Positions 3,619 through 16,110 of a stretch of DNA of 21,198 nt are shown piece after piece. Source of the stretch: a virus; the IMG/VR virus record IMGVR_UViG_3300035703_002886, positions 1-21,198 of that record; one strand, 5' to 3'. The notes under the pieces were generated by a model that had not been told where the DNA came from, did no database searches, and saw only the letters and a program-made list of their open reading frames with translations. How positions within the stretch are numbered: the stretch's first letter is position 1; every line of letters starts with the position of its first letter. The translations under genes and the position numbers were made by a program.

Positions 3619-4437
3619 ATGAAAATTCATCAAATACTCATAAATGATACTAATAAGTTACCTGATAAATTTCCAAAGTTTCATAATGTTTGCGTAAATC
3701 AAATTAAAAAGTTATATCAAAATGAAGAATATCATTTATATTCTGGAGAAGAACTAGAAGAAATTATAAAATCTAATTTTCATGTCGATGTATTTGCTGC
3801 ATATAATAAATTAAAACCTTATGCTTATAAAGCAGATCTTGCAAGATATTGTTTATTATATCTTTATGGTGGTCTTTATATCGACTTAAATGTGTATTTT
3901 ATTAATACTATTCCCGACTTAGATGAGTTAGATTTTTTTGCATTTAGAGATAGGTCTAAAGCATCTATGCAATGTTGGGCTGTGCAAAATTGTATTATGT
4001 TTTCACATAAAAGTTCAAATGTAACTAAAGGTGCAATTGATTTAATCGTAAAAAATTGCAAAGAAGAATATTATGGAATACAACCTATTGATGTGAGTGG
4101 TCCAACTATTCTGGGAATGTCTATAGTAAATTCTTTGCCGAATTTAAAAATTTCAACTCGCGGACAACAAGATTTTATTTTAAAAAATAATCTTAATATT
4201 GAAATAATAGAAAAATTAAATAAAAATGGTTATAATAATATGGATATATTGGAAGGATATATAATTGATGATAATGATAAACTGGTTGCCATAAGAAAAC
4301 CTTCATCTGATGGTGATATTGAAAAATTGAGATTTAAAGGAACAAATAATTTTGTAAAAATGTGGAGAGATAGACAAATTTACAATAAGAAATTTAAATT
4401 TACAGATAAAAAATTAATATCATTAAATTATCAATGA
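3619..4437 (+). CDS. Glycosyltransferase with DXD-type sugar-binding domain (GT32/OCH1-like)
   Basis: 272 residues from ATG 3619, one base after the previous stop. The N-terminus MKIHQILINDTNKLP and the KPYAYKADLARYCLLYLYGG core (residues 67-85) are typical of the Gly_transf_sug family (GT32, OCH1/capsule type). The motif normally reading YxDxD is YIDLN here (D89-L-N91), so the second acidic residue is replaced by Asn. QNCIMFSHKSS and SGPTILG further on also fit the family. The C-terminal 60 residues are Lys/Asn-rich. It probably adds a hexose to a glycan; whether the DLN variant lowers activity or alters metal use is open. Its last four bases overlap the next gene (ATGA). Confidence 0.75.
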   Translation: MKIHQILINDTNKLPDKFPKFHNVCVNQIKKLYQNEEYHLYSGEELEEIIKSNFHVDVFAAYNKLKPYAYKADLARYCLLYLYGGLYIDLNVYFINTIPDLDELDFFAFRDRSKASMQCWAVQNCIMFSHKSSNVTKGAIDLIVKNCKEEYYGIQPIDVSGPTILGMSIVNSLPNLKISTRGQQDFILKNNLNIEIIEKLNKNGYNNMDILEGYIIDDNDKLVAIRKPSSDGDIEKLRFKGTNNFVKMWRDRQIYNKKFKFTDKKLISLNYQ

Positions 4438-5267
4438 AATCTTATTATTTTATTTCTGGACTTCCAAGATCTGGTTCCACATTACTTTCTTCTATTCTTC
4501 GACAAAATCCAGAGTTTTATGCAGATATTGCATCACCAGTAGAAGCACTTACCGAGTCTGCAATTGATATAGTCACAAGCACAGGAAGTAATCTAACAGT
4601 TACAGAAGAACAAAGAAAAAATTTAATGTATGGAATTTTTGAAGGTTACTATACGCATATAGAGAATTCAGTAGTTTTTGATAGTTCGAGGAGTTGGACA
4701 AAAAAAACTAATTTTCTCAAGGCACTTTTTCCTTATACTAAAATTTTATGTCCCGTAAGAGACATCGTTTCAATTTTAAATTCATTTGAAGTCATTTCAT
4801 CAAAAAATCCATTTTATACCAATACACTCACGAAGCATATTGACAATGTATTTGTGAGATGTAATAATATGATGAATAAGAATGACGGAATTGTTGCGGG
4901 CCCTTGGATTTTTCTTCAAGAAGGTTATGCACTCAATCCAGAGATGATTCACTTTATTGAATATGAAAATTTGTGTAAAGATCCAGAAAAGACAATGAAA
5001 GGTATCTATGAGTTTCTAGAAAAACCTTATTACTCTCATGATTTTCAAAACCTTGAATATTCTAACGAAAACTTCGATAAAGCATATAATCTTAAAAATT
5101 TACATACCGTTAAAAGAAAAGTAGAATACAAACCACCAAGATGTATTCTTCCTCCAGAAATCGTTCAGAAGTATGTGGAAATGAATATGGAGTTCTGGAA
5201 AAAAAGTTATAAAACTAACTCAAATATTATTGAAAAGTTGGATAAGAAGTTTATCGAGTATGAATAA
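4434..5267 (+). CDS. Sulfotransferase (Sulfotransfer_3 type)
   Basis: 277 residues from ATG 4434, overlapping the preceding stop as ATGA, so translational coupling is likely. Residues 7-19 (ISGLPRSGSTLLS) form the P-loop-like 5'-phosphosulfate-binding motif of PAPS-dependent sulfotransferases. CPVRDIVSILNSFE (106-119) supplies the 3'-phosphate-binding Arg109 and Ser113. The region between carries the SRSW-KKTNFLKALFP spacing common to this family. It would move sulfate from host-made PAPS to a hydroxyl or amine, plausibly on the glycan made by the two preceding glycosyltransferases. It belongs to a different sulfotransferase family from the two at 9327 and 12770. Confidence 0.85.
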   Translation: MKSYYFISGLPRSGSTLLSSILRQNPEFYADIASPVEALTESAIDIVTSTGSNLTVTEEQRKNLMYGIFEGYYTHIENSVVFDSSRSWTKKTNFLKALFPYTKILCPVRDIVSILNSFEVISSKNPFYTNTLTKHIDNVFVRCNNMMNKNDGIVAGPWIFLQEGYALNPEMIHFIEYENLCKDPEKTMKGIYEFLEKPYYSHDFQNLEYSNENFDKAYNLKNLHTVKRKVEYKPPRCILPPEIVQKYVEMNMEFWKKSYKTNSNIIEKLDKKFIEYE

Positions 5268-5381: not shown

Positions 5382-6944
5382 ATGAGAATTCTAACAATAC
5401 CAATATTAATGCATGACAGTTCAATTACTGAATTTTATGATGGTGAAATAATTTCTTACAAAATGGAAGAAAGATTTTCTAGAAAAAAACATGACTTTTG
5501 TTATGAAGAAATATTAAATTCAATATCCAAAAATAAAAAATATATATTCGATTATGTAATCATAATTAAGCATACGATAGAAGAATATATTTATCCAATT
5601 AAAAGTGTATTAAAATTATTAGAAAAAATACCACATAAACAAATTTTAATATGCGATGAAGAACATCATCTTTATCATGCATATTGTGGATTTTATAATT
5701 CAAATTTTGATGATGCACTTTGTTTTTCCATAGATGGTGTTGGTGCATTATTGCGTGATAATAATTTGGAATTAGAAAGTGTATACTATTTAAATAGAAA
5801 AAACGAAGTAAAAGAAATTTTTAAAAGGACTAGAAAATTTCAAATGTGTTCTGAAGATAATAATATTCTTGATCATTATAAAAGAATAAATTATGAGGAT
5901 CAAACTGTTGGTGAAAAGTTTGCCTTATATTCATACAAAATAAATTATAACATTCTTGACGGACCAGGAAAAGTAATGGGTCTTGCTCAGTATAAAAATA
6001 ATAAACATAAACTACAATATCCATACGACACAAATGAATGGAAAGAAAGAGTAAATGGTGCTCATGATATACAACAAGAAACACAAAATCATGTGTTAAA
6101 TCTTATAAAAAAATATACAGAAAAAACTAATATTAAAAATGTTGTGATCTCTGGTGGTTATGGGTTGAATTGTGTCGCAAATTATTATTATCTCAAAAAC
6201 CTTAAGAACATCAACTTTTACATAGATCCAGTTTGTTTCGATGCAGGTATTAGTATTGGCGTCGCATATTATCATTATTTACAATCTTCTCAAAACTTAT
6301 TTCCAATACAACCACTTCAAAATGTTTACATAGGACATCAAGAAACTTCTTATGACTTAAAAGGTTTACAAACACAAAAAGTATCTCATGAGGACATAGT
6401 AAACCTTCTCCTTCAAAAAAATATTATTGCACTGTTCCAAGGAAGAAGCGAAGCGGGTCAAAGAGCACTTGGCAATCGTTCTTTACTTTTTGATCCAAGA
6501 ATTCCTGATGGGAAGGATTTGGTTAATAAAATTAAAAAAAGAGAAAGCTTTCGTCCTTTTGCTGGAACTATTCTTCAAGAAGAAGCACATAAATGGTTTA
6601 ATATGCTTTCATTGAAAGAAAGTCCTTATATGCAATATGCAATGGATGCTTATAAAAATACAATAGAGCAAGTTCCTGCGATTATTCACGCAGATAACAC
6701 TTGCAGAATTCAAACGGTCACACTAGAGCAAAATCAACATTTTTATAATTTGATTTCCTGTTTCTTTGAGAAAACTGGAGTTCCTATGTTATTAAATACC
6801 AGTTTTAATCTTGGTGGAGAACCATTGGTTGAGACCCTCAAACATGCGATTCACACTCTTAAGAATAGCATGATAGAATACTTATATCTTCCAGAGATAG
6901 AAACATTAGTTACGATTAAAAATAAAAAACTAATGTATAAATAA
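5382..6944 (+). CDS. Full-length carbamoyltransferase (NodU/CmcH/TobZ family)
   Basis: About 520 residues. ATG 5382 is chosen because MRILTIPILMHDSS-x7-DGEIISYKMEERFSRKKHD matches the family's N-terminus; the upstream TTG (5334) adds 16 unrelated residues. N-terminal Kae1-like domain: HHLYH (H95 and H99, HxxxH metal site), FSIDGVG (D118), GPGKVMGLAQY, VISGGYGLNC and PVCFDAGISIG (D287). C-terminal YrdC-like domain from about residue 340: FQGRSEAGQRALGNRS, RESFRPFAGTIL, HADNTCRIQT and LLNTSFNLGGEP. In TobZ the C-terminal domain makes carbamoyl-adenylate from carbamoyl phosphate and ATP, and the N-terminal domain transfers the carbamoyl to a hydroxyl. All landmark motifs are intact, so activity is expected. 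It sits with sulfo- and glycosyltransferases, suggesting O-carbamoylation of a sugar. Confidence 0.92.
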   Translation: MRILTIPILMHDSSITEFYDGEIISYKMEERFSRKKHDFCYEEILNSISKNKKYIFDYVIIIKHTIEEYIYPIKSVLKLLEKIPHKQILICDEEHHLYHAYCGFYNSNFDDALCFSIDGVGALLRDNNLELESVYYLNRKNEVKEIFKRTRKFQMCSEDNNILDHYKRINYEDQTVGEKFALYSYKINYNILDGPGKVMGLAQYKNNKHKLQYPYDTNEWKERVNGAHDIQQETQNHVLNLIKKYTEKTNIKNVVISGGYGLNCVANYYYLKNLKNINFYIDPVCFDAGISIGVAYYHYLQSSQNLFPIQPLQNVYIGHQETSYDLKGLQTQKVSHEDIVNLLLQKNIIALFQGRSEAGQRALGNRSLLFDPRIPDGKDLVNKIKKRESFRPFAGTILQEEAHKWFNMLSLKESPYMQYAMDAYKNTIEQVPAIIHADNTCRIQTVTLEQNQHFYNLISCFFEKTGVPMLLNTSFNLGGEPLVETLKHAIHTLKNSMIEYLYLPEIETLVTIKNKKLMYK

Positions 6945-7001: not shown

Positions 7002-7610
7002 ATGAAAAATACAAAACTCGTAAAAATAGAACCTAATTTTATATCAGAAGAAGAATCAAAGGTATTATCAAATTGGACTTCATCTAATTATGATCAACCA
7101 TACTTCATGAATCCGAAAATGAATAATGATAAAGTTCAAACAAGATTTACGACTCGTCATGCTCATCATAGAATAAGTGAGTATCAAGATTTTAAAGTTA
7201 AATATCCAAAAGAAGTCTATAATATTCAAAAAAGAATTTTTAAATATTTAAATTTAACTCTAAACGATATCATACCTTTTCCAGCATTTACTGATGGAAT
7301 TGTAACAACTTTTGGATTTTCTCCTGGAAGTTGTATAAGTCATAAAGATCCAATTTATTATCAAAATACCTATACTTTACATTGCAATTTTTGCACTCAA
7401 ACTCCAGAAAGTGGAGGAATAACTATACTTGAAGGTAAAGAATATCCATTTAAATATAGAGATATGATAATGTATGTTGCATCACATGTTGAGCATGAAG
7501 TTAGTGAATGTGTTGGAAATACTCCAAGAGTTTTATGGATATTTGGATTTTGTGTTTCTTTAGAACAAATGAATAATATTTTTAATATTAAATCTTTTAC
7601 ATATAGTTAA
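7002..7610 (+). CDS. 2OG-Fe(II) oxygenase (prolyl-4-hydroxylase-like)
   Basis: 202 residues from ATG 7002. HKDPIYYQNTYTLHCNFC gives the HxD iron ligands (H114, D116) in the loop before a core strand. TPESGGITILEGKEYPF and YRDMIMYVASHVEHEVSEC supply the distal histidine (H165, possibly H162), and GNTPRVLWIFGF the 2-oxoglutarate Arg (R176). Substrate unknown. It separates the full-length carbamoyltransferase from the split one and is two bases from the next ORF. Notably, a diverged copy of its last 31 codons is found at 9933-10028, in frame behind the sulfotransferase stop, implying that a second oxygenase of this family once lay there. Confidence 0.78.
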   Translation: MKNTKLVKIEPNFISEEESKVLSNWTSSNYDQPYFMNPKMNNDKVQTRFTTRHAHHRISEYQDFKVKYPKEVYNIQKRIFKYLNLTLNDIIPFPAFTDGIVTTFGFSPGSCISHKDPIYYQNTYTLHCNFCTQTPESGGITILEGKEYPFKYRDMIMYVASHVEHEVSECVGNTPRVLWIFGFCVSLEQMNNIFNIKSFTYS

Positions 7611-7612
7611 AT

Positions 7613-8182
7613 ATGAATAAATTAAAACTTATAGAAAATGTTGAATCTTATGATATTGCAAATTTATTATTAGATAATAAATTTATTTGCATATTTAATG
7701 GAAGATCCGAAGCTTCTCCAAGAGCATTGGGCAATAGGTCTTTAATATTTAATCCTACAATTTCATCAAATAAAGATGTAGTTAACGAAATAAAAGGAAG
7801 AGAAAAGTTTAGACCATTAGCTTGCTCTATTCTTTTAGATCACACTAAAAATTGGTTTTATATGAATGATATAGAAGAATCTCCTTTTATGACTTACTCG
7901 TTTAATGTTAAATCTGAAAAAGAACATCTCATTTCATCTGTCATACATGTTGATGGTACTTGCAGATTGCAGACAGTATCAAAAAAAAACAATTTTAACT
8001 ATTATTCAATAATAGAGAATTTTTACAATTTATGTAATGTTCCACTAATTGGAAATACTTCATTTAATTTAGCAGGTGATCCAATAGTAGAAACCATTGA
8101 AGATGCGATAAAAACAATACATCTTTCAAAATTAAATTATTTGTATTTTCCTGAGTGTAAATTTCTTATAAAAAAAACATAA
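7613..8182 (+). CDS. Carbamoyltransferase C-terminal (YrdC-like, carbamoyl-adenylate-forming) domain as a separate gene
   Basis: 189 residues beginning only about 12 residues before the domain. It contains all the C-domain landmarks: FNGRSEASPRALGNRS (28-43), REKFRPLACSIL (63-74), IHVDGTCRLQT (111-121) and IGNTSFNLAGDP (146-157). The matching part of the full-length enzyme at 5382-6944 starts at about its residue 340. No N-terminal Kae1-like domain is present upstream; instead that domain is the next gene, two bases downstream. The two products should together make one enzyme. The protein is clearly diverged from the C domain of the upstream full-length enzyme, so it is not a recent duplicate fragment, and the intact frame argues against decay. 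Confidence 0.88.
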   Translation: MNKLKLIENVESYDIANLLLDNKFICIFNGRSEASPRALGNRSLIFNPTISSNKDVVNEIKGREKFRPLACSILLDHTKNWFYMNDIEESPFMTYSFNVKSEKEHLISSVIHVDGTCRLQTVSKKNNFNYYSIIENFYNLCNVPLIGNTSFNLAGDPIVETIEDAIKTIHLSKLNYLYFPECKFLIKKT

Positions 8183-8184
8183 TT

Positions 8185-9324
8185 ATGATTATAGTATCTA
8201 TTGCCATACAAAATCACAATGCATCAATATGCATTCTAGAAGATGAAAAAATTTTACTTTTATTGCAAGAAGAAAGAGTAAGTAGAATAAAAAATGATTC
8301 TTCACTTCCACTTAAAATGCTTAATTGCATACAAAATTACGCAAAAGTAATCGATTACTTATGTCTTACAAATATAAGAGAAGAAGAAAAAATATATATA
8401 TGTGATTTTTTGAATATTAATAAGATAAAAGTACTCGATATTATTTTTGAAGGATCTGATAATCATCATTTATATCATGCATCTTCTGCTTTTTATGGTT
8501 CTGGATTTGAAGAATCTGCATGTCTTGTTATAGATGGTTGGGGAGGTGCATTTAATGACTCTAAAAATAATTTATCTTTTCTAGAGACAACATCAATATA
8601 TTGTGCAAATTATCCAAATAATTTTACCACAATATATAAAAATTTGTGGTATTTGCCACATATTAACACTCCAGATCAATATATTATGTCTGACTTTGAG
8701 TCTCAATTTGATTATGATGTTAATTTAAATCATCATTTAGACCTAGGAGTCATGTATCGCACAGTAACTGATCATATTGGATATTCTGTGATAGGAGGTC
8801 AAGGAAAAACTATGGGATTATCTGCATATGGCAAATCAAATAAAAATATTCCAAATATTTTATGTGAAAATAGTATTTTATCTAATATGAATTTATTTCT
8901 TTCAAATAGATCTTTAAACATAAATTTATTTCCATATTTAAAAAATATGGATTTTCAAAAAAAAGCAGATTTGGCATATTCAATTCAACAAGCATTAGAA
9001 AAAATATTTTTAGAAAGAATTGATTATACAATAAAAAAAACAAATTGCAAAAATATTGTTTTTTCTGGTGGATGTGCATTGAATGTAGTTGGTAATTCGG
9101 AAATTAAAAAAAACTTTTCCAAAATAAACTTTTATGTAGATCCAATATCTAATGATGCATGTCAGTCTTTTGGTGCTGCAAAATTTTATTATCACCAGAT
9201 TACAAATAGCAATAAAATTTCCAAATTAGAAAATTTATATCTTGGTGATGATTATAATATTGCAAAAAACAAAAATAAAATTAAATGTGCAGTGGATAAA
9301 TACAATCTAATAAACTATAATTGA
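8185..9324 (+). CDS. Carbamoyltransferase N-terminal (Kae1-like) domain as a separate gene
   Basis: 379 residues from ATG 8185. Motifs: IQNHNAS (9-14), LQEERVSR (28-34), DNHHLYHASSAFYGSGF (from residue 92; H94 and H98 metal ligands), LVIDGWGG (D117), GQGKTMGLSAYG, FSGGCALNVVGN and DPISNDACQSFGAA (D324). It ends with the LENLYLGDDYN linker plus about 22 residues, exactly where full-length relatives run into the C-terminal domain. The catalytic carbamoyl-transfer domain is therefore complete, but it depends on a C-terminal partner, supplied by the preceding gene (7613-8182) or possibly by the intact enzyme at 5382. It is one of the most A/T-rich genes here, with many poly-A runs. Confidence 0.88.
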   Translation: MIIVSIAIQNHNASICILEDEKILLLLQEERVSRIKNDSSLPLKMLNCIQNYAKVIDYLCLTNIREEEKIYICDFLNINKIKVLDIIFEGSDNHHLYHASSAFYGSGFEESACLVIDGWGGAFNDSKNNLSFLETTSIYCANYPNNFTTIYKNLWYLPHINTPDQYIMSDFESQFDYDVNLNHHLDLGVMYRTVTDHIGYSVIGGQGKTMGLSAYGKSNKNIPNILCENSILSNMNLFLSNRSLNINLFPYLKNMDFQKKADLAYSIQQALEKIFLERIDYTIKKTNCKNIVFSGGCALNVVGNSEIKKNFSKINFYVDPISNDACQSFGAAKFYYHQITNSNKISKLENLYLGDDYNIAKNKNKIKCAVDKYNLINYN

Positions 9325-9326
9325 TA

Positions 9327-9932
9327 ATGACAATTAATCATAAAAAGAAACTTATATTCATTCATATACCAAAAAATGCAGGAACTTCTATTATTAAGAC
9401 AATGGGAATTGAAAATCTTTATATGGATAAAACCATAGAGGAATATAAAGAACATTATAAAGATTATTGGAAATCTTATACAAAATTTACTGTAGTTCGT
9501 GATCCAGTGGATAGATTTATTTCTGCATATAAATTTGCAAGAATGAAAGAAAGTGGTTGGTTTTCTGCAACTGGAGAAGAAGGTTTAGAAAAACATCATC
9601 ATTATGAAATGTGCAATTCGATGGATATTAATGAATATGTTTCTTACCTTTATAAAAATTTAAAAGAATTTAACAGATGGATAATGCCTCAAACATTTAT
9701 TATTGAAAATAAAAATGGAGAAATAGAAATAGATTATTTTGTAAGATATGAGAATCTTTTAAATGACTTACAAAAAATTGGTATTGATAAAATTGAAAAA
9801 TTAAATTCATCAAAAGTTAATGACGATCAAGTAATTCAACTTACAAAAAAATCTAAACATATGTTATATGAAATTTATGATATTGACTATCAAAACTTTT
9901 TTTATGTAAAAAATATATTCTATTATAATTAA
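9327..9932 (+). CDS. Sulfotransferase family 2 (PF03567-like), paralogue A
   Basis: 201 residues from ATG 9327, which is preferred over the TTG at 9321 because the paralogue at 12770 begins with the same MTINH. Residues 11-21 (FIHIPKNAGTS) form the 5'-phosphosulfate-binding loop and FTVVRDPVDRFISAYKF (54-70) the 3'-phosphate site with R58 and S67. The family sulfates carbohydrates using PAPS. It starts two bases after the split carbamoyltransferase stop. Its stop codon is followed in the same frame by the tail of a lost oxygenase gene. It shares N-terminus, core and the QLTKKSKHMLYEIYDIDYQ C-terminal motif with the gene at 12770, so the two are duplicates or related imports. Confidence 0.85.
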   Translation: MTINHKKKLIFIHIPKNAGTSIIKTMGIENLYMDKTIEEYKEHYKDYWKSYTKFTVVRDPVDRFISAYKFARMKESGWFSATGEEGLEKHHHYEMCNSMDINEYVSYLYKNLKEFNRWIMPQTFIIENKNGEIEIDYFVRYENLLNDLQKIGIDKIEKLNSSKVNDDQVIQLTKKSKHMLYEIYDIDYQNFFYVKNIFYYN

Positions 9933-12736: not shown

Positions 12737-12770
12737 ATGGAAATCATTAAATGAGTTATATAATCAATAA
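12729..12770 (+). pseudogene. 13-codon truncated gene start (or leader peptide), MFKWKSLNELYNQ
   Basis: ATG 12729 has an excellent ribosome site and overlaps the end of the GT9 gene, a normal phage gene junction. Translation gives MFKWKSLNELYNQ and then stops at TAA, whose last base is the first base of the sulfotransferase ATG (TAATG). The peptide looks like the beginning of a larger protein cut off where the sulfotransferase begins. The stop-start overlap would let ribosomes re-initiate, so it may now work as a leader. The identity of the lost gene is not determinable here; the start faintly resembles some SAM-dependent methyltransferases, which I could not check. Confidence 0.55.
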
Positions 12771-13402
12771 TGACAATAAATCACGAAAAAAAATTAATAT
12801 TCATACATATACCAAAAACTGCAGGAACATCAGTACATGCATCTTTAGGTGTAAAAGAGACTTTACTTAACAATAAATTTGTAGGACATAAAAGTATATG
12901 CGATTATAAGAAACAATATAAAAATTATTGGAACATTTATTTGAAATTTACTGTAGTTAGAGATCCAATAGATAGATTTATTTCTGCATATAAGTTTATG
13001 AAAATGGAAGAAAATTTTTGGCATTCGCCAAACAATCCAAATAAGTATCCAATTCATGAACATTATAAAATATGCAATTCTTTAGATATTAATCAATACA
13101 TTTCATACTTATCTAAAACGACAAAAAATCATTCTATGCTTACTGTACCTCAAATATTTTTTATTATGGATAAATATGAAAAAATCGAAATTGATTATAT
13201 TGCAAAATATGAAAATTTAAATAATGACTTAAAAAAAATTGGAATTGACTTGGTTGATAGATTAAATATATCTACTATAAAAGATAAAAGTTCTATACAA
13301 TTAACAAAAAAATCAAAAAAAATGTTATATGACATTTATGATATGGATTATCAGTACTTTTCTTATATCAAGGATGTTAAAAATATATTTTCTTACGATT
13401 AA
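12770..13402 (+). CDS. Sulfotransferase family 2 (PF03567-like), paralogue B
   Basis: 210 residues from ATG 12770. FIHIPKTAGTS (11-21) is the 5'-phosphosulfate loop and FTVVRDPIDRFISAYKF (60-76, R64 and S73 region) the 3'-phosphate site. The C-terminus carries QLTKKSKKMLYDIYDMDYQ, nearly the same as in the gene at 9327, and both begin MTINH, so the two are paralogues that differ mainly in the central acceptor-facing part (FWHSPNNPNKYP here versus WFSATGEEGLEKHH there). The difference suggests distinct acceptor specificity. It begins in a TAATG overlap with a 13-codon truncated ORF. The 56 bases after it hold no recognised gene. Confidence 0.85.
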   Translation: MTINHEKKLIFIHIPKTAGTSVHASLGVKETLLNNKFVGHKSICDYKKQYKNYWNIYLKFTVVRDPIDRFISAYKFMKMEENFWHSPNNPNKYPIHEHYKICNSLDINQYISYLSKTTKNHSMLTVPQIFFIMDKYEKIEIDYIAKYENLNNDLKKIGIDLVDRLNISTIKDKSSIQLTKKSKKMLYDIYDMDYQYFSYIKDVKNIFSYD

Positions 13403-14417: not shown

Positions 14418-14942
14418 ATGACTTATGAAATTATAGATAATTTTCTTGAGAAAGAAGATTTTGATTTTATTATATCTACATTTTTTCCAAGTGACTTAAA
14501 TAATCCAAATAATTTTGCTTGGAATTATCAAAAAGGAATCGTAAGAGATCCAGAATTCGGACCAACAGGATATGAAGAAAATGACTGGATTTATGTACAT
14601 TCATTATACTCCAGTGATAATGGACTTAAGTTTGATAGACATTATTCTATAGTCAAACCAATTTTAAATAAACTCAAAATAAAAAAACTTTTTGATATTC
14701 GTGCAAATCTTTTAGTTCCTACAAAAGATCATATTTATCATGAGTTTCATATTGATCGAAAAGTGCTTCATAAAGTTGCCTTATTTTATGTAACATCTTG
14801 TAATGGTTTTACTGTGCTTAAGGATACTGCTGAAGTACAATGTTTGGAAAACAATATGTTACTCTTTGATGGAAATATAGAGCATCATTCAGTAACTTCA
14901 ACTGACTATCCTCGATGCGTGATTAACATTAATTATCTATAA
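14418..14942 (+). CDS. 2OG-Fe(II) oxygenase, short form A
   Basis: 174 residues from ATG 14418, four bases after the preceding stop. HEFHIDRKVLHKVALFYV provides HxD (H111, D113) and the next core strand; NGFTVLKD is the turn; ENNMLLFDGNIEHHSVTS contains the distal His (H156 or H157); YPRCVININY holds the 2-oxoglutarate Arg (R166). The catalytic half is clearly paralogous to the gene at 15625 (same NG-T-V, LLLFD, HHS and RVN-type spacing). Substrate unknown. Being the first of three consecutive oxygenases directly behind a virion-like gene, it may modify that product. Confidence 0.78.
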   Translation: MTYEIIDNFLEKEDFDFIISTFFPSDLNNPNNFAWNYQKGIVRDPEFGPTGYEENDWIYVHSLYSSDNGLKFDRHYSIVKPILNKLKIKKLFDIRANLLVPTKDHIYHEFHIDRKVLHKVALFYVTSCNGFTVLKDTAEVQCLENNMLLFDGNIEHHSVTSTDYPRCVININYL

Positions 14943-14957
14943 ATTGGAGAATATTTT

Positions 14958-15632
14958 ATGACTTTTAATCCACAAAAACTTAAATATAACTTTAAGGAAT
15001 TTATTGGAATTTATGAAAATGCATTTACATTAAATGAGTGTGAAGATACTGTAAAGTTATTTGAAACTTATCACAAAGCAGGTTTTACCTATGATAGATT
15101 TGAAGGGACACTTAATCATAAAGATGATATTTCAGCAACCATTGGACCAAATGTAGAGCTTGATTGGAATATTGAATTTATCAATTCATTTCATGATAGA
15201 TTTTACAATTACATTTATCCATTATATAATATTCAATATCCTGTATTGCAAACTTTACAAAAACATAGATCAAAAATTATTAAAATACAAAAAACATATC
15301 CAACGAAAGGTTATCATGTTTGGCATTGTGAGCATGATGCAACTTTATCGGGTAAAGAAAGAATTTTATCTTGGATTCTATATTTAAATAATGTAGAAGA
15401 AGGTGGAGAGACAGAATTTTTATACCAATCATTAAGATTTAAACCAAAAGCAGGAACTTTTATTCTTTTTCCCGCACACTTTACACATACGCATAGAGGA
15501 AATCCACCACTATCTGGAGTTAAATATATCGCAACCGGATGGATCGAATTTTTAAATACGACAGAACCTCAAGGAGCATCTATAATTCCAAATTTAAATC
15601 AAATAAAAAATAGCAACTTAGATTATGCATAA
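14958..15632 (+). CDS. 2OG-Fe(II) oxygenase, P4H-like with HxE motif
   Basis: 224 residues from ATG 14958, with a GGAGA ribosome site at 14945-14949. YHVWHCEHDA gives H123-x-E125 rather than the usual HxD, followed by RILSWILYLNNVEEGGETEF, the typical P4H strand and GGET turn. FKPKAGTFILFPAHFTHTHRGNPP supplies the distal His (H177 by alignment) and GVKYIATGWIEF the probable 2-oxoglutarate Lys (K189). This matches the P4H-type oxygenases widely seen in T4-like cyanophages; the WHxE form has been noticed in such phage proteins, so it is likely a genuine variant and not a defect. It overlaps the next oxygenase gene by eight bases. Confidence 0.85.
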   Translation: MTFNPQKLKYNFKEFIGIYENAFTLNECEDTVKLFETYHKAGFTYDRFEGTLNHKDDISATIGPNVELDWNIEFINSFHDRFYNYIYPLYNIQYPVLQTLQKHRSKIIKIQKTYPTKGYHVWHCEHDATLSGKERILSWILYLNNVEEGGETEFLYQSLRFKPKAGTFILFPAHFTHTHRGNPPLSGVKYIATGWIEFLNTTEPQGASIIPNLNQIKNSNLDYA

Positions 15633-16110
15633 AATTATAGATAATGTTCTTCCAAAAGAAGAATTTGAAAATATCAAAAACTTTATGTTAAATCCACATT
15701 TTCCGTGGAATTTAACAACTGTTGTGTCTAATAAAAAAGAAAATTTACCGATATCAGCATCTTATTATTTTACTCATGAGTTTTGGTCTGGTTTTCATAC
15801 AGAGCCAGAGGCACAAGTATTTGCACCAATTCTTAATCAAATTGAGTGTCGTGCAGTGATGAGAATTAAAGGAAACTTATATCCTTCGACAGAAACTATA
15901 GTTCATCATATTGATCATGTGGATTATGAGTTTCCTCATCGTGGTGCAATTTTTTATTTAAATACCAATAATGGTCTCACAGTAGTTGATGGAAAAGAAG
16001 TAGAATCTGTAGAAAATCGTTTATTACTTTTTGATCCAACAGTTCCTCATCATAGTACAACTTGCACCAATGATAAGTGTAGAGTGAATGTAAATTTTAA
16101 CTTCTTTTGA
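15625..16110 (+). CDS. 2OG-Fe(II) oxygenase, short form B
   Basis: 161 residues from ATG 15625, overlapping the previous gene by eight bases. IVHHIDHVDYEFPHRGAIFYL supplies HxD (H95, D97) and the core strand; NNGLTVVDGKEVESVENRLLLFDPTVPHHSTT gives the distal His (H142 or H143); DKCRVNVNFNFF holds the 2-oxoglutarate Arg (R153). It is a paralogue of the gene at 14418. Third of three adjacent oxygenases; its downstream 37 bases carry a short AGGAAgTTCCT inverted repeat and the promoter for the next ORF. Confidence 0.8.
   Translation: MHKIIDNVLPKEEFENIKNFMLNPHFPWNLTTVVSNKKENLPISASYYFTHEFWSGFHTEPEAQVFAPILNQIECRAVMRIKGNLYPSTETIVHHIDHVDYEFPHRGAIFYLNTNNGLTVVDGKEVESVENRLLLFDPTVPHHSTTCTNDKCRVNVNFNFF

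What the first reader, a model, noticed from the sequence alone, without database searches (positions are those of the whole stretch)
7613..9324. Carbamoyltransferase split into two genes in reversed (C-domain first) order
Seen: gene 7613-8182 carries only the YrdC-like C-terminal domain motifs, and gene 8185-9324 only the Kae1-like N-terminal domain motifs. They are two bases apart, both intact, with all landmark residues. The break lies in the inter-domain linker and nothing is missing when the two are joined (379 + 189 residues against about 520 in the fused copy upstream). Known: NodU/CmcH/TobZ enzymes are single chains with N then C order, and the carbamoyl-adenylate intermediate passes between domains. 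Inference: a two-subunit, circularly permuted enzyme, which may also exchange subunits with the intact enzyme at 5382-6944. It could have arisen from a tandem pair that lost the outer halves.
Basis: partly seen in the sequence, partly recalled or inferred. Interest (0 to 1): 0.78.

Follow-up and report, generated by a model that had tools for sequence, protein, structure and literature searches.

The report
Phage carbamoyltransferase in two subunits
Many ocean viruses that infect cyanobacteria encode a carbamoyl-adding enzyme as two separate genes, the activating half first and the transferring half second, where the known enzyme is a single protein; the arrangement is conserved, often repeated in tandem, and looks like a genuine two-part enzyme whose parts can be mixed.

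Summary
Window 7613-8182 is a complete Carbam_trans_C (YrdC-like) protein and 8185-9324 a complete Carbam_trans_N (Kae1-like) protein, two bases apart, C first. All catalytic residues known from TobZ/GdmN are kept. It is not an assembly error or a one-off. A survey gave 67 distinct virus contigs or phage records with 99 such C-then-N pairs (46 with a 4-base overlap), including cultured cyanophages S-SCSM1, S-RIM44 and Sf-FP1. No chain fused in C-N order was found, and none of 70 bacterial or archaeal loci had a C-then-N pair. Separate trees place the window's C and N in the same orthologous group ("pair 2"), found in other viruses in tandem arrays C-N-C-N(-N) between thyX and rbpA/phoH. In the window and six related contigs a 2OG-oxygenase gene lies directly upstream of C. 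Best reading: a two-subunit O-carbamoyltransferase in which C makes carbamoyl-AMP and N passes the carbamoyl group to a hydroxyl, here probably one made by the adjacent oxygenase. Subunit contact and activity are not shown. "Circularly permuted" applies to gene order only. Subunit exchange with the fused enzyme at 5382-6944 is untested.

The parts
7613..8182 (+). Stand-alone YrdC-like (Carbam_trans_C) subunit, 189 aa; predicted to make carbamoyl-AMP
   Evidence: PF16861 E 9.6e-53; PDB matches VtdB, NovN, GdmN, TobZ; KxR...SxN residues kept
8185..9324 (+). Stand-alone Kae1-like (Carbam_trans_N) subunit, 379 aa; predicted to transfer the carbamoyl group
   Evidence: PF02543 E 3.2e-28; PDB matches NovN, TobZ, GdmN; Fe ligands and base His kept
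7002..7610 (+). 2OG-Fe(II)-oxygenase-type protein (H-x-D...H...R motif), 2 bases upstream of the C gene; proposed maker of the acceptor hydroxyl
   Evidence: No Pfam match; 35% identical to S-SCSM1_241, annotated 2OG-Fe(II) oxygenase; motif kept in all homologs, which lie directly upstream of C in 6 other contigs
9321..9932 (+). Sulfotransferase gene following the N gene (ATG at 9327)
   Evidence: PF03567 E 5.3e-14; homolog also downstream of the pair in L009/L101 and upstream of it in L008/L100
5382..6944 (+). Fused N-C carbamoyltransferase, 520 aa, paralogue in the same island
   Evidence: PF16861 E 3.4e-57 and PF02543 E 7.8e-15 in one chain; relative in L008/L100

Best explanation
7613-8182 and 8185-9324 encode the two subunits of a class III O-carbamoyltransferase. 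Step 1 (inferred from homology and intact KxR...SxN): the C protein activates carbamoyl phosphate with ATP to carbamoyl-AMP. Step 2 (inferred): the N protein binds it at its Fe(II) site and transfers the carbamoyl group to a hydroxyl using the conserved His. The intermediate must pass between two polypeptides, as in the TsaC/TsaD t6A pathway, most likely within a complex. Translation is probably coupled (4-base overlaps or a few bases between the genes). In the window the acceptor hydroxyl is probably installed by the 2OG oxygenase encoded directly upstream, on a glycan or tail-fibre-related substrate, given the surrounding glycosyltransferases and sulfotransferases; this substrate is a guess (about 0.3). 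The pair is an established gene unit in cyanophage-type viruses, with a second setting in tandem arrays next to thyX.
For: Domain content and intactness. 99 C-then-N pairs in 67 distinct contigs or records, 46 with a 4-base overlap (47 of 48 such overlaps in the full set read ATGA), 27 with other overlaps, 26 with 0-6 bases between; no C-N fused chain. Cultured phages S-SCSM1 (two pairs in tandem), S-RIM44 and Sf-FP1. Window C and N fall in the same orthologous 'pair 2' set in independent trees (10-row C set 97*, 46-row N set 99*). C and N distances correlate across 75 pairs (r 0.79, 0 of 2000 permutations). Catalytic residues invariant or nearly so. The predicted N part of a relative has the TobZ/GdmN N-domain fold (Z about 28, rmsd 2.8-3.0). 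2OG oxygenase beside the pair in the window and six related contigs, and between C and N in L114.
Against: No direct evidence of complex or activity. AlphaFold2 of a read-through C-N relative folds both domains (pLDDT 84) but pTM 0.68 leaves the docking open; the N-C order test failed on the C domain. Congruent trees are expected from linkage alone. Collection patterns contained some of the motif residues, so part of the invariance is selected. The C proteins could serve several N proteins, so strict one-to-one pairing is not shown.
Confidence: 0.75

Rival explanations
1. The C and N genes are decaying halves of broken fused genes, on the way to loss.
For: Split genes in N-C order at overlapping ORFs do occur: L056 and two bacterial loci L186, L244. 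Two N lineages have lost the base His.
Against: Conserved full-length ORFs across 67 contigs or records and deep trees, regular 4-base overlaps, all active-site residues kept.
Confidence: 0.07
2. C is a shared activating subunit for several acceptor subunits: the adjacent N, other N-only genes, and the N domain of fused enzymes. (An extension of the best explanation, not exclusive of it.)
For: More N than C genes: C-N-C-N-N and N-C-N arrays; N followed by N in 19 distinct contigs. N-only genes beside fused enzymes with Fe ligands kept, as in S-SSM7 and Sf-FS3.
Against: In the window-type island there is one C and one N; the fused copy has its own C domain. No biochemical data.
Confidence: 0.4
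3. The pair modifies phage DNA (5-carbamoyloxymethyl-pyrimidine) as the fused enzyme of PMC8670742 does.
For: In the array setting the pairs lie between thyX and rbpA/phoH/cas4-like exonuclease. A fused phage carbamoyltransferase next to a thymidylate synthase made 5-carbamoyloxymethyl-dC from 5hmdC.
Against: The window pair has no thyX neighbour; it lies among 2OG oxygenase, sulfotransferase, glycosyltransferase and tail-fibre genes. The neighbouring ThyX proteins of the array setting carry RHRSFT[YF]QEFSQRY, which I judge from memory to be an ordinary ThyX motif, with no sign of a hydroxymethylase.
Confidence: 0.15
4. Assembly artefact at 8180-8190 or 9324.
For: None found.
Against: The same junction order occurs in independent contigs and in cultured, annotated phage genomes.
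Confidence: 0.01

Closest known systems
Class III O-carbamoyltransferases (TobZ, GdmN, NovN, VtdB, NodU/CmcH)
   Same: Both domains, Fe ligands, base His, KxR...SxN motifs; N-subunit fold Z about 28
   Different: Two polypeptides, C gene first; the known members are single chains in N-C order
Phage 5-hydroxymethylcytosine carbamoyltransferase (MetaGPA, PMC8670742)
   Same: Phage Carbam_trans_N/C enzyme near a thymidylate synthase, as in the array setting
   Different: Single 63 kDa chain; splitting is not mentioned in that paper; the window pair is not near thyX
TsaC/TsaD (YrdC + Kae1) of t6A biosynthesis
   Same: YrdC-like and Kae1-like proteins on separate chains that hand over an acyl-adenylate
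   Different: Different sequence families; uses threonylcarbamoyl-AMP and tRNA; C matches Carbam_trans_C and no Sua5/YrdC model
HypF
   Same: YrdC domain before Kae1 domain, carbamoyl-AMP intermediate (PMC9654439)
   Different: One chain with ACP and zinc-finger domains; S-carbamoylation of HypE
PHROG 20469 and split 'Nol-like carbamoyltransferase' entries in S-RIM44 and S-SCSM1
   Same: The same kind of separate C and N genes, already deposited
   Different: Annotated only as two carbamoyltransferases; no description of a two-subunit enzyme found in the papers searched

Membership tests
Class III O-carbamoyltransferase (NodU/CmcH/TobZ) | Carbam_trans_N and Carbam_trans_C domains present | tested here: met
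   Both over cut-off, on separate genes
Class III O-carbamoyltransferase (NodU/CmcH/TobZ) | Fe ligands HxxxH...D...D and base His in the Kae1-like domain | tested here: met
   H94, H98, D117, D324, H11 (compared with GdmN in PMC9633730)
Class III O-carbamoyltransferase (NodU/CmcH/TobZ) | KxR...SxN motif in the YrdC-like domain | tested here: met
   K61-G-R63, S150-F-N152; invariant in 112 split and 94 fused C domains
Class III O-carbamoyltransferase (NodU/CmcH/TobZ) | Single chain, N domain then C domain | tested here: not met
   Two genes, C first, in the window and 66 other contigs or records
Class III O-carbamoyltransferase (NodU/CmcH/TobZ) | Interdomain channel / domain interface | tested here: inconclusive
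   pTM 0.68 for a read-through relative; second model failed on the C domain
Class III O-carbamoyltransferase (NodU/CmcH/TobZ) | Carbamoyl transfer to a hydroxyl | not testable with these tools
   Needs an assay
HypF | YrdC then Kae1 in one chain with ACP and Zn-finger domains | tested here: not met
   Separate chains; no such domains; HypF_C_2 match below cut-off
TsaC/TsaD (t6A) | Sua5/YrdC and TsaD family sequence | tested here: not met
   C gene matches only PF16861; N gene matches PF02543, a TsaD chain only weakly (E 3.8e-6)

The most novel reading that the evidence does not exclude
Phages have turned a single-chain carbamoyltransferase into a modular system: stand-alone carbamoyl-adenylate-making subunits that feed several different acceptor subunits in trans, including N domains of fused enzymes, so that one activation step serves several hydroxylated targets (DNA, glycan or protein).
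Probability: 0.35. Interest if true: 0.8.

Novelty: new variant of a known kind. Interest (0 to 1): 0.57.

Why it matters
It indicates that the carbamoyl-AMP handover between YrdC-like and Kae1-like domains, described as an internal channel in TobZ and HypF, can be encoded on separate proteins in O-carbamoyltransferases, as it is in t6A synthesis. It gives a natural system in which activation and acceptor choice are separable and can be tested by mixing subunits. It also improves the annotation of a common cyanophage gene pair, now listed as two carbamoyltransferases, and offers candidate enzymes for phage DNA or surface modification.

Tried and rejected
Single-protein IMG/VR scans found few relatives; alignment queries were needed. 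A first alignment for structure prediction (A3) put N-terminal parts of N rows on the C domain and was dropped; A4 misplaced N tails. AlphaFold2 of an N-C read-through relative failed on the C domain, probably because few C rows were present, so the TobZ-like interface could not be judged; Foldseek of the C-N model gave TM-scores of about 0.4 to TobZ, as expected when chain order differs. One clade for all split C genes is not rejected (p-AU 0.29, leaving out L056 and L078), so the number of origins stays open. Assembly error rejected by recurrence. The S-SCSM1 paper does not mention carbamoyltransferases; a paper search for split phage carbamoyltransferases found nothing (held library only).

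Full report
Observation. The window is a 21,198-base virus record. Genes 7613-8182 and 8185-9324 are intact, two bases apart and on the + strand. The first is only Carbam_trans_C, the second only Carbam_trans_N apart from a sub-threshold Kae1-like HypF_C_2 match. Gene 5382-6944 has both domains in N-C order. Against the full-length PHROG 1601 model the two split genes cover positions 355-524 and 1-339, so the break is in the linker. The residues that bind iron and act as base in GdmN (H133, H137, D156, D333, H27; PMC9633730) correspond to H94, H98, D117, D324 and H11 of the N protein; the KxR...SxN motif of YrdC-like domains (PMC9654439) is K61-R63 and S150-N152 of the C protein.

Survey. Phage records: S-SCSM1 has two C-N pairs in tandem (genes 194-197), S-RIM44 one pair (gp035/034), Sf-FP1 one pair (218/219), and single-virus record AG-345-D19 one pair. 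IMG/VR scans with alignments of split C and split N gave 80 and 79 loci. After removal of repeat fetches, 67 contigs or records hold 99 C-then-N pairs; 32 hold two or more; in 19 an N gene is followed by another N gene. Of the 99 spacings 46 are a 4-base overlap, 27 other overlaps, 26 are 0-6 bases. No chain has C before N. Among 70 bacterial and archaeal loci found with the split-N alignment, none has a C-then-N pair; two have split genes in N-C order. The survey started from split sequences and was capped, so these are counts, not frequencies.

Trees. C and N domains were treed apart. Genes at array position 1 and position 2 form separate groups; the extra third N derives from the position-2 N group (99*). 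The window's C and N both fall with position-2 genes. S-RIM44 and Sf-FP1 N genes fall with position 1. Pairwise distances of C and N agree across 75 pairs (r 0.79; none of 2000 permutations reached it), as co-inheritance predicts; linkage alone could also give this. A single origin of split C genes, with L056 and L078 left out, is not rejected.

Settings. (A) Arrays lie between thyX and rbpA, phoH and a cas4-like exonuclease gene. The ThyX proteins carry the motif RHRSFT[YF]QEFSQRY, which I take from memory to be usual. (B) In the window and contigs L100, L101, L021, L108, L109 and L113 the gene just upstream of C is a homolog of window 7002-7610; it has H-x-D...H...R in every member, no Pfam match, and its S-SCSM1 homolog is annotated 2OG-Fe(II) oxygenase. 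In L114 a different, Pfam-supported 2OG oxygenase lies between C and N. Sulfotransferase, glycosyltransferase and tail-fibre genes surround the window's pair. (C) Fused enzymes with an extra N-only gene occur in S-SSM7, Sf-FS3 and several contigs.

Structure. A relative in which C and N can be read through in one frame (stop read as Gly) gave pLDDT 84.1 and pTM 0.68. Its N part matches GdmN, NovN and TobZ N domains at Z about 28. The relative placement of the two parts is not established. A second model in N-C order failed on its C domain.

Interpretation. Shown: the gene arrangement, its conservation, the intact domains and active-site residues. Inferred: that C makes carbamoyl-AMP and N transfers the group, that they form a complex, that the oxygenase supplies the hydroxyl, and what the substrate is. 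The fused phage enzyme of PMC8670742 acts on 5hmC, which makes DNA a candidate for setting A but not clearly for the window.

Verdict. Real and conserved; a two-subunit form of a known enzyme class. The separate genes are already deposited as carbamoyltransferases, but I found no description of the two-subunit arrangement in the papers searched.

Noticed in passing
L042, L053, L066, L071, L092, L096, L097 (N-C-N layout): The base His (TobZ H14, window H11) is Lys in upstream N genes (L042, L053, L066, L071, L096, L097) and Asn in downstream N genes (L066, L071, L092, L096, L097), although the Fe ligands are kept.
   Followed up: partly
window 7002-7610: A 2OG-oxygenase-like family with an H-x-D...H...R motif that Pfam does not detect.
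   Followed up: yes
L013 5095-5649 (S-SSM7_124); window 14418-14942 and 15625-16110: S-SSM7 'denV, DNA endonuclease V' matches 2OG-FeII_Oxy_3 in Pfam; the two window genes match PHROG 274 'DNA endonuclease V' but no Pfam family, so the label is doubtful.
   Followed up: partly
L013 3989-5098, L014 3968-5125, L154, L155, L174, L176, L178: An extra N-only gene downstream of a fused N-C enzyme, in S-SSM7 and Sf-FS3 with a 2OG oxygenase directly before it.
   Followed up: partly
window 4434-5267, 9321-9932, 12770-13402: Three sulfotransferase genes in one tail-fibre island.
   Followed up: no
L186 80-1613 (Maricaulis MAG contig of 4,036 bases); L056: Carbamoyltransferase split in the canonical N-C order with overlapping ORFs; the Maricaulis MAG also has another C-only frame on a second contig.
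   Followed up: no
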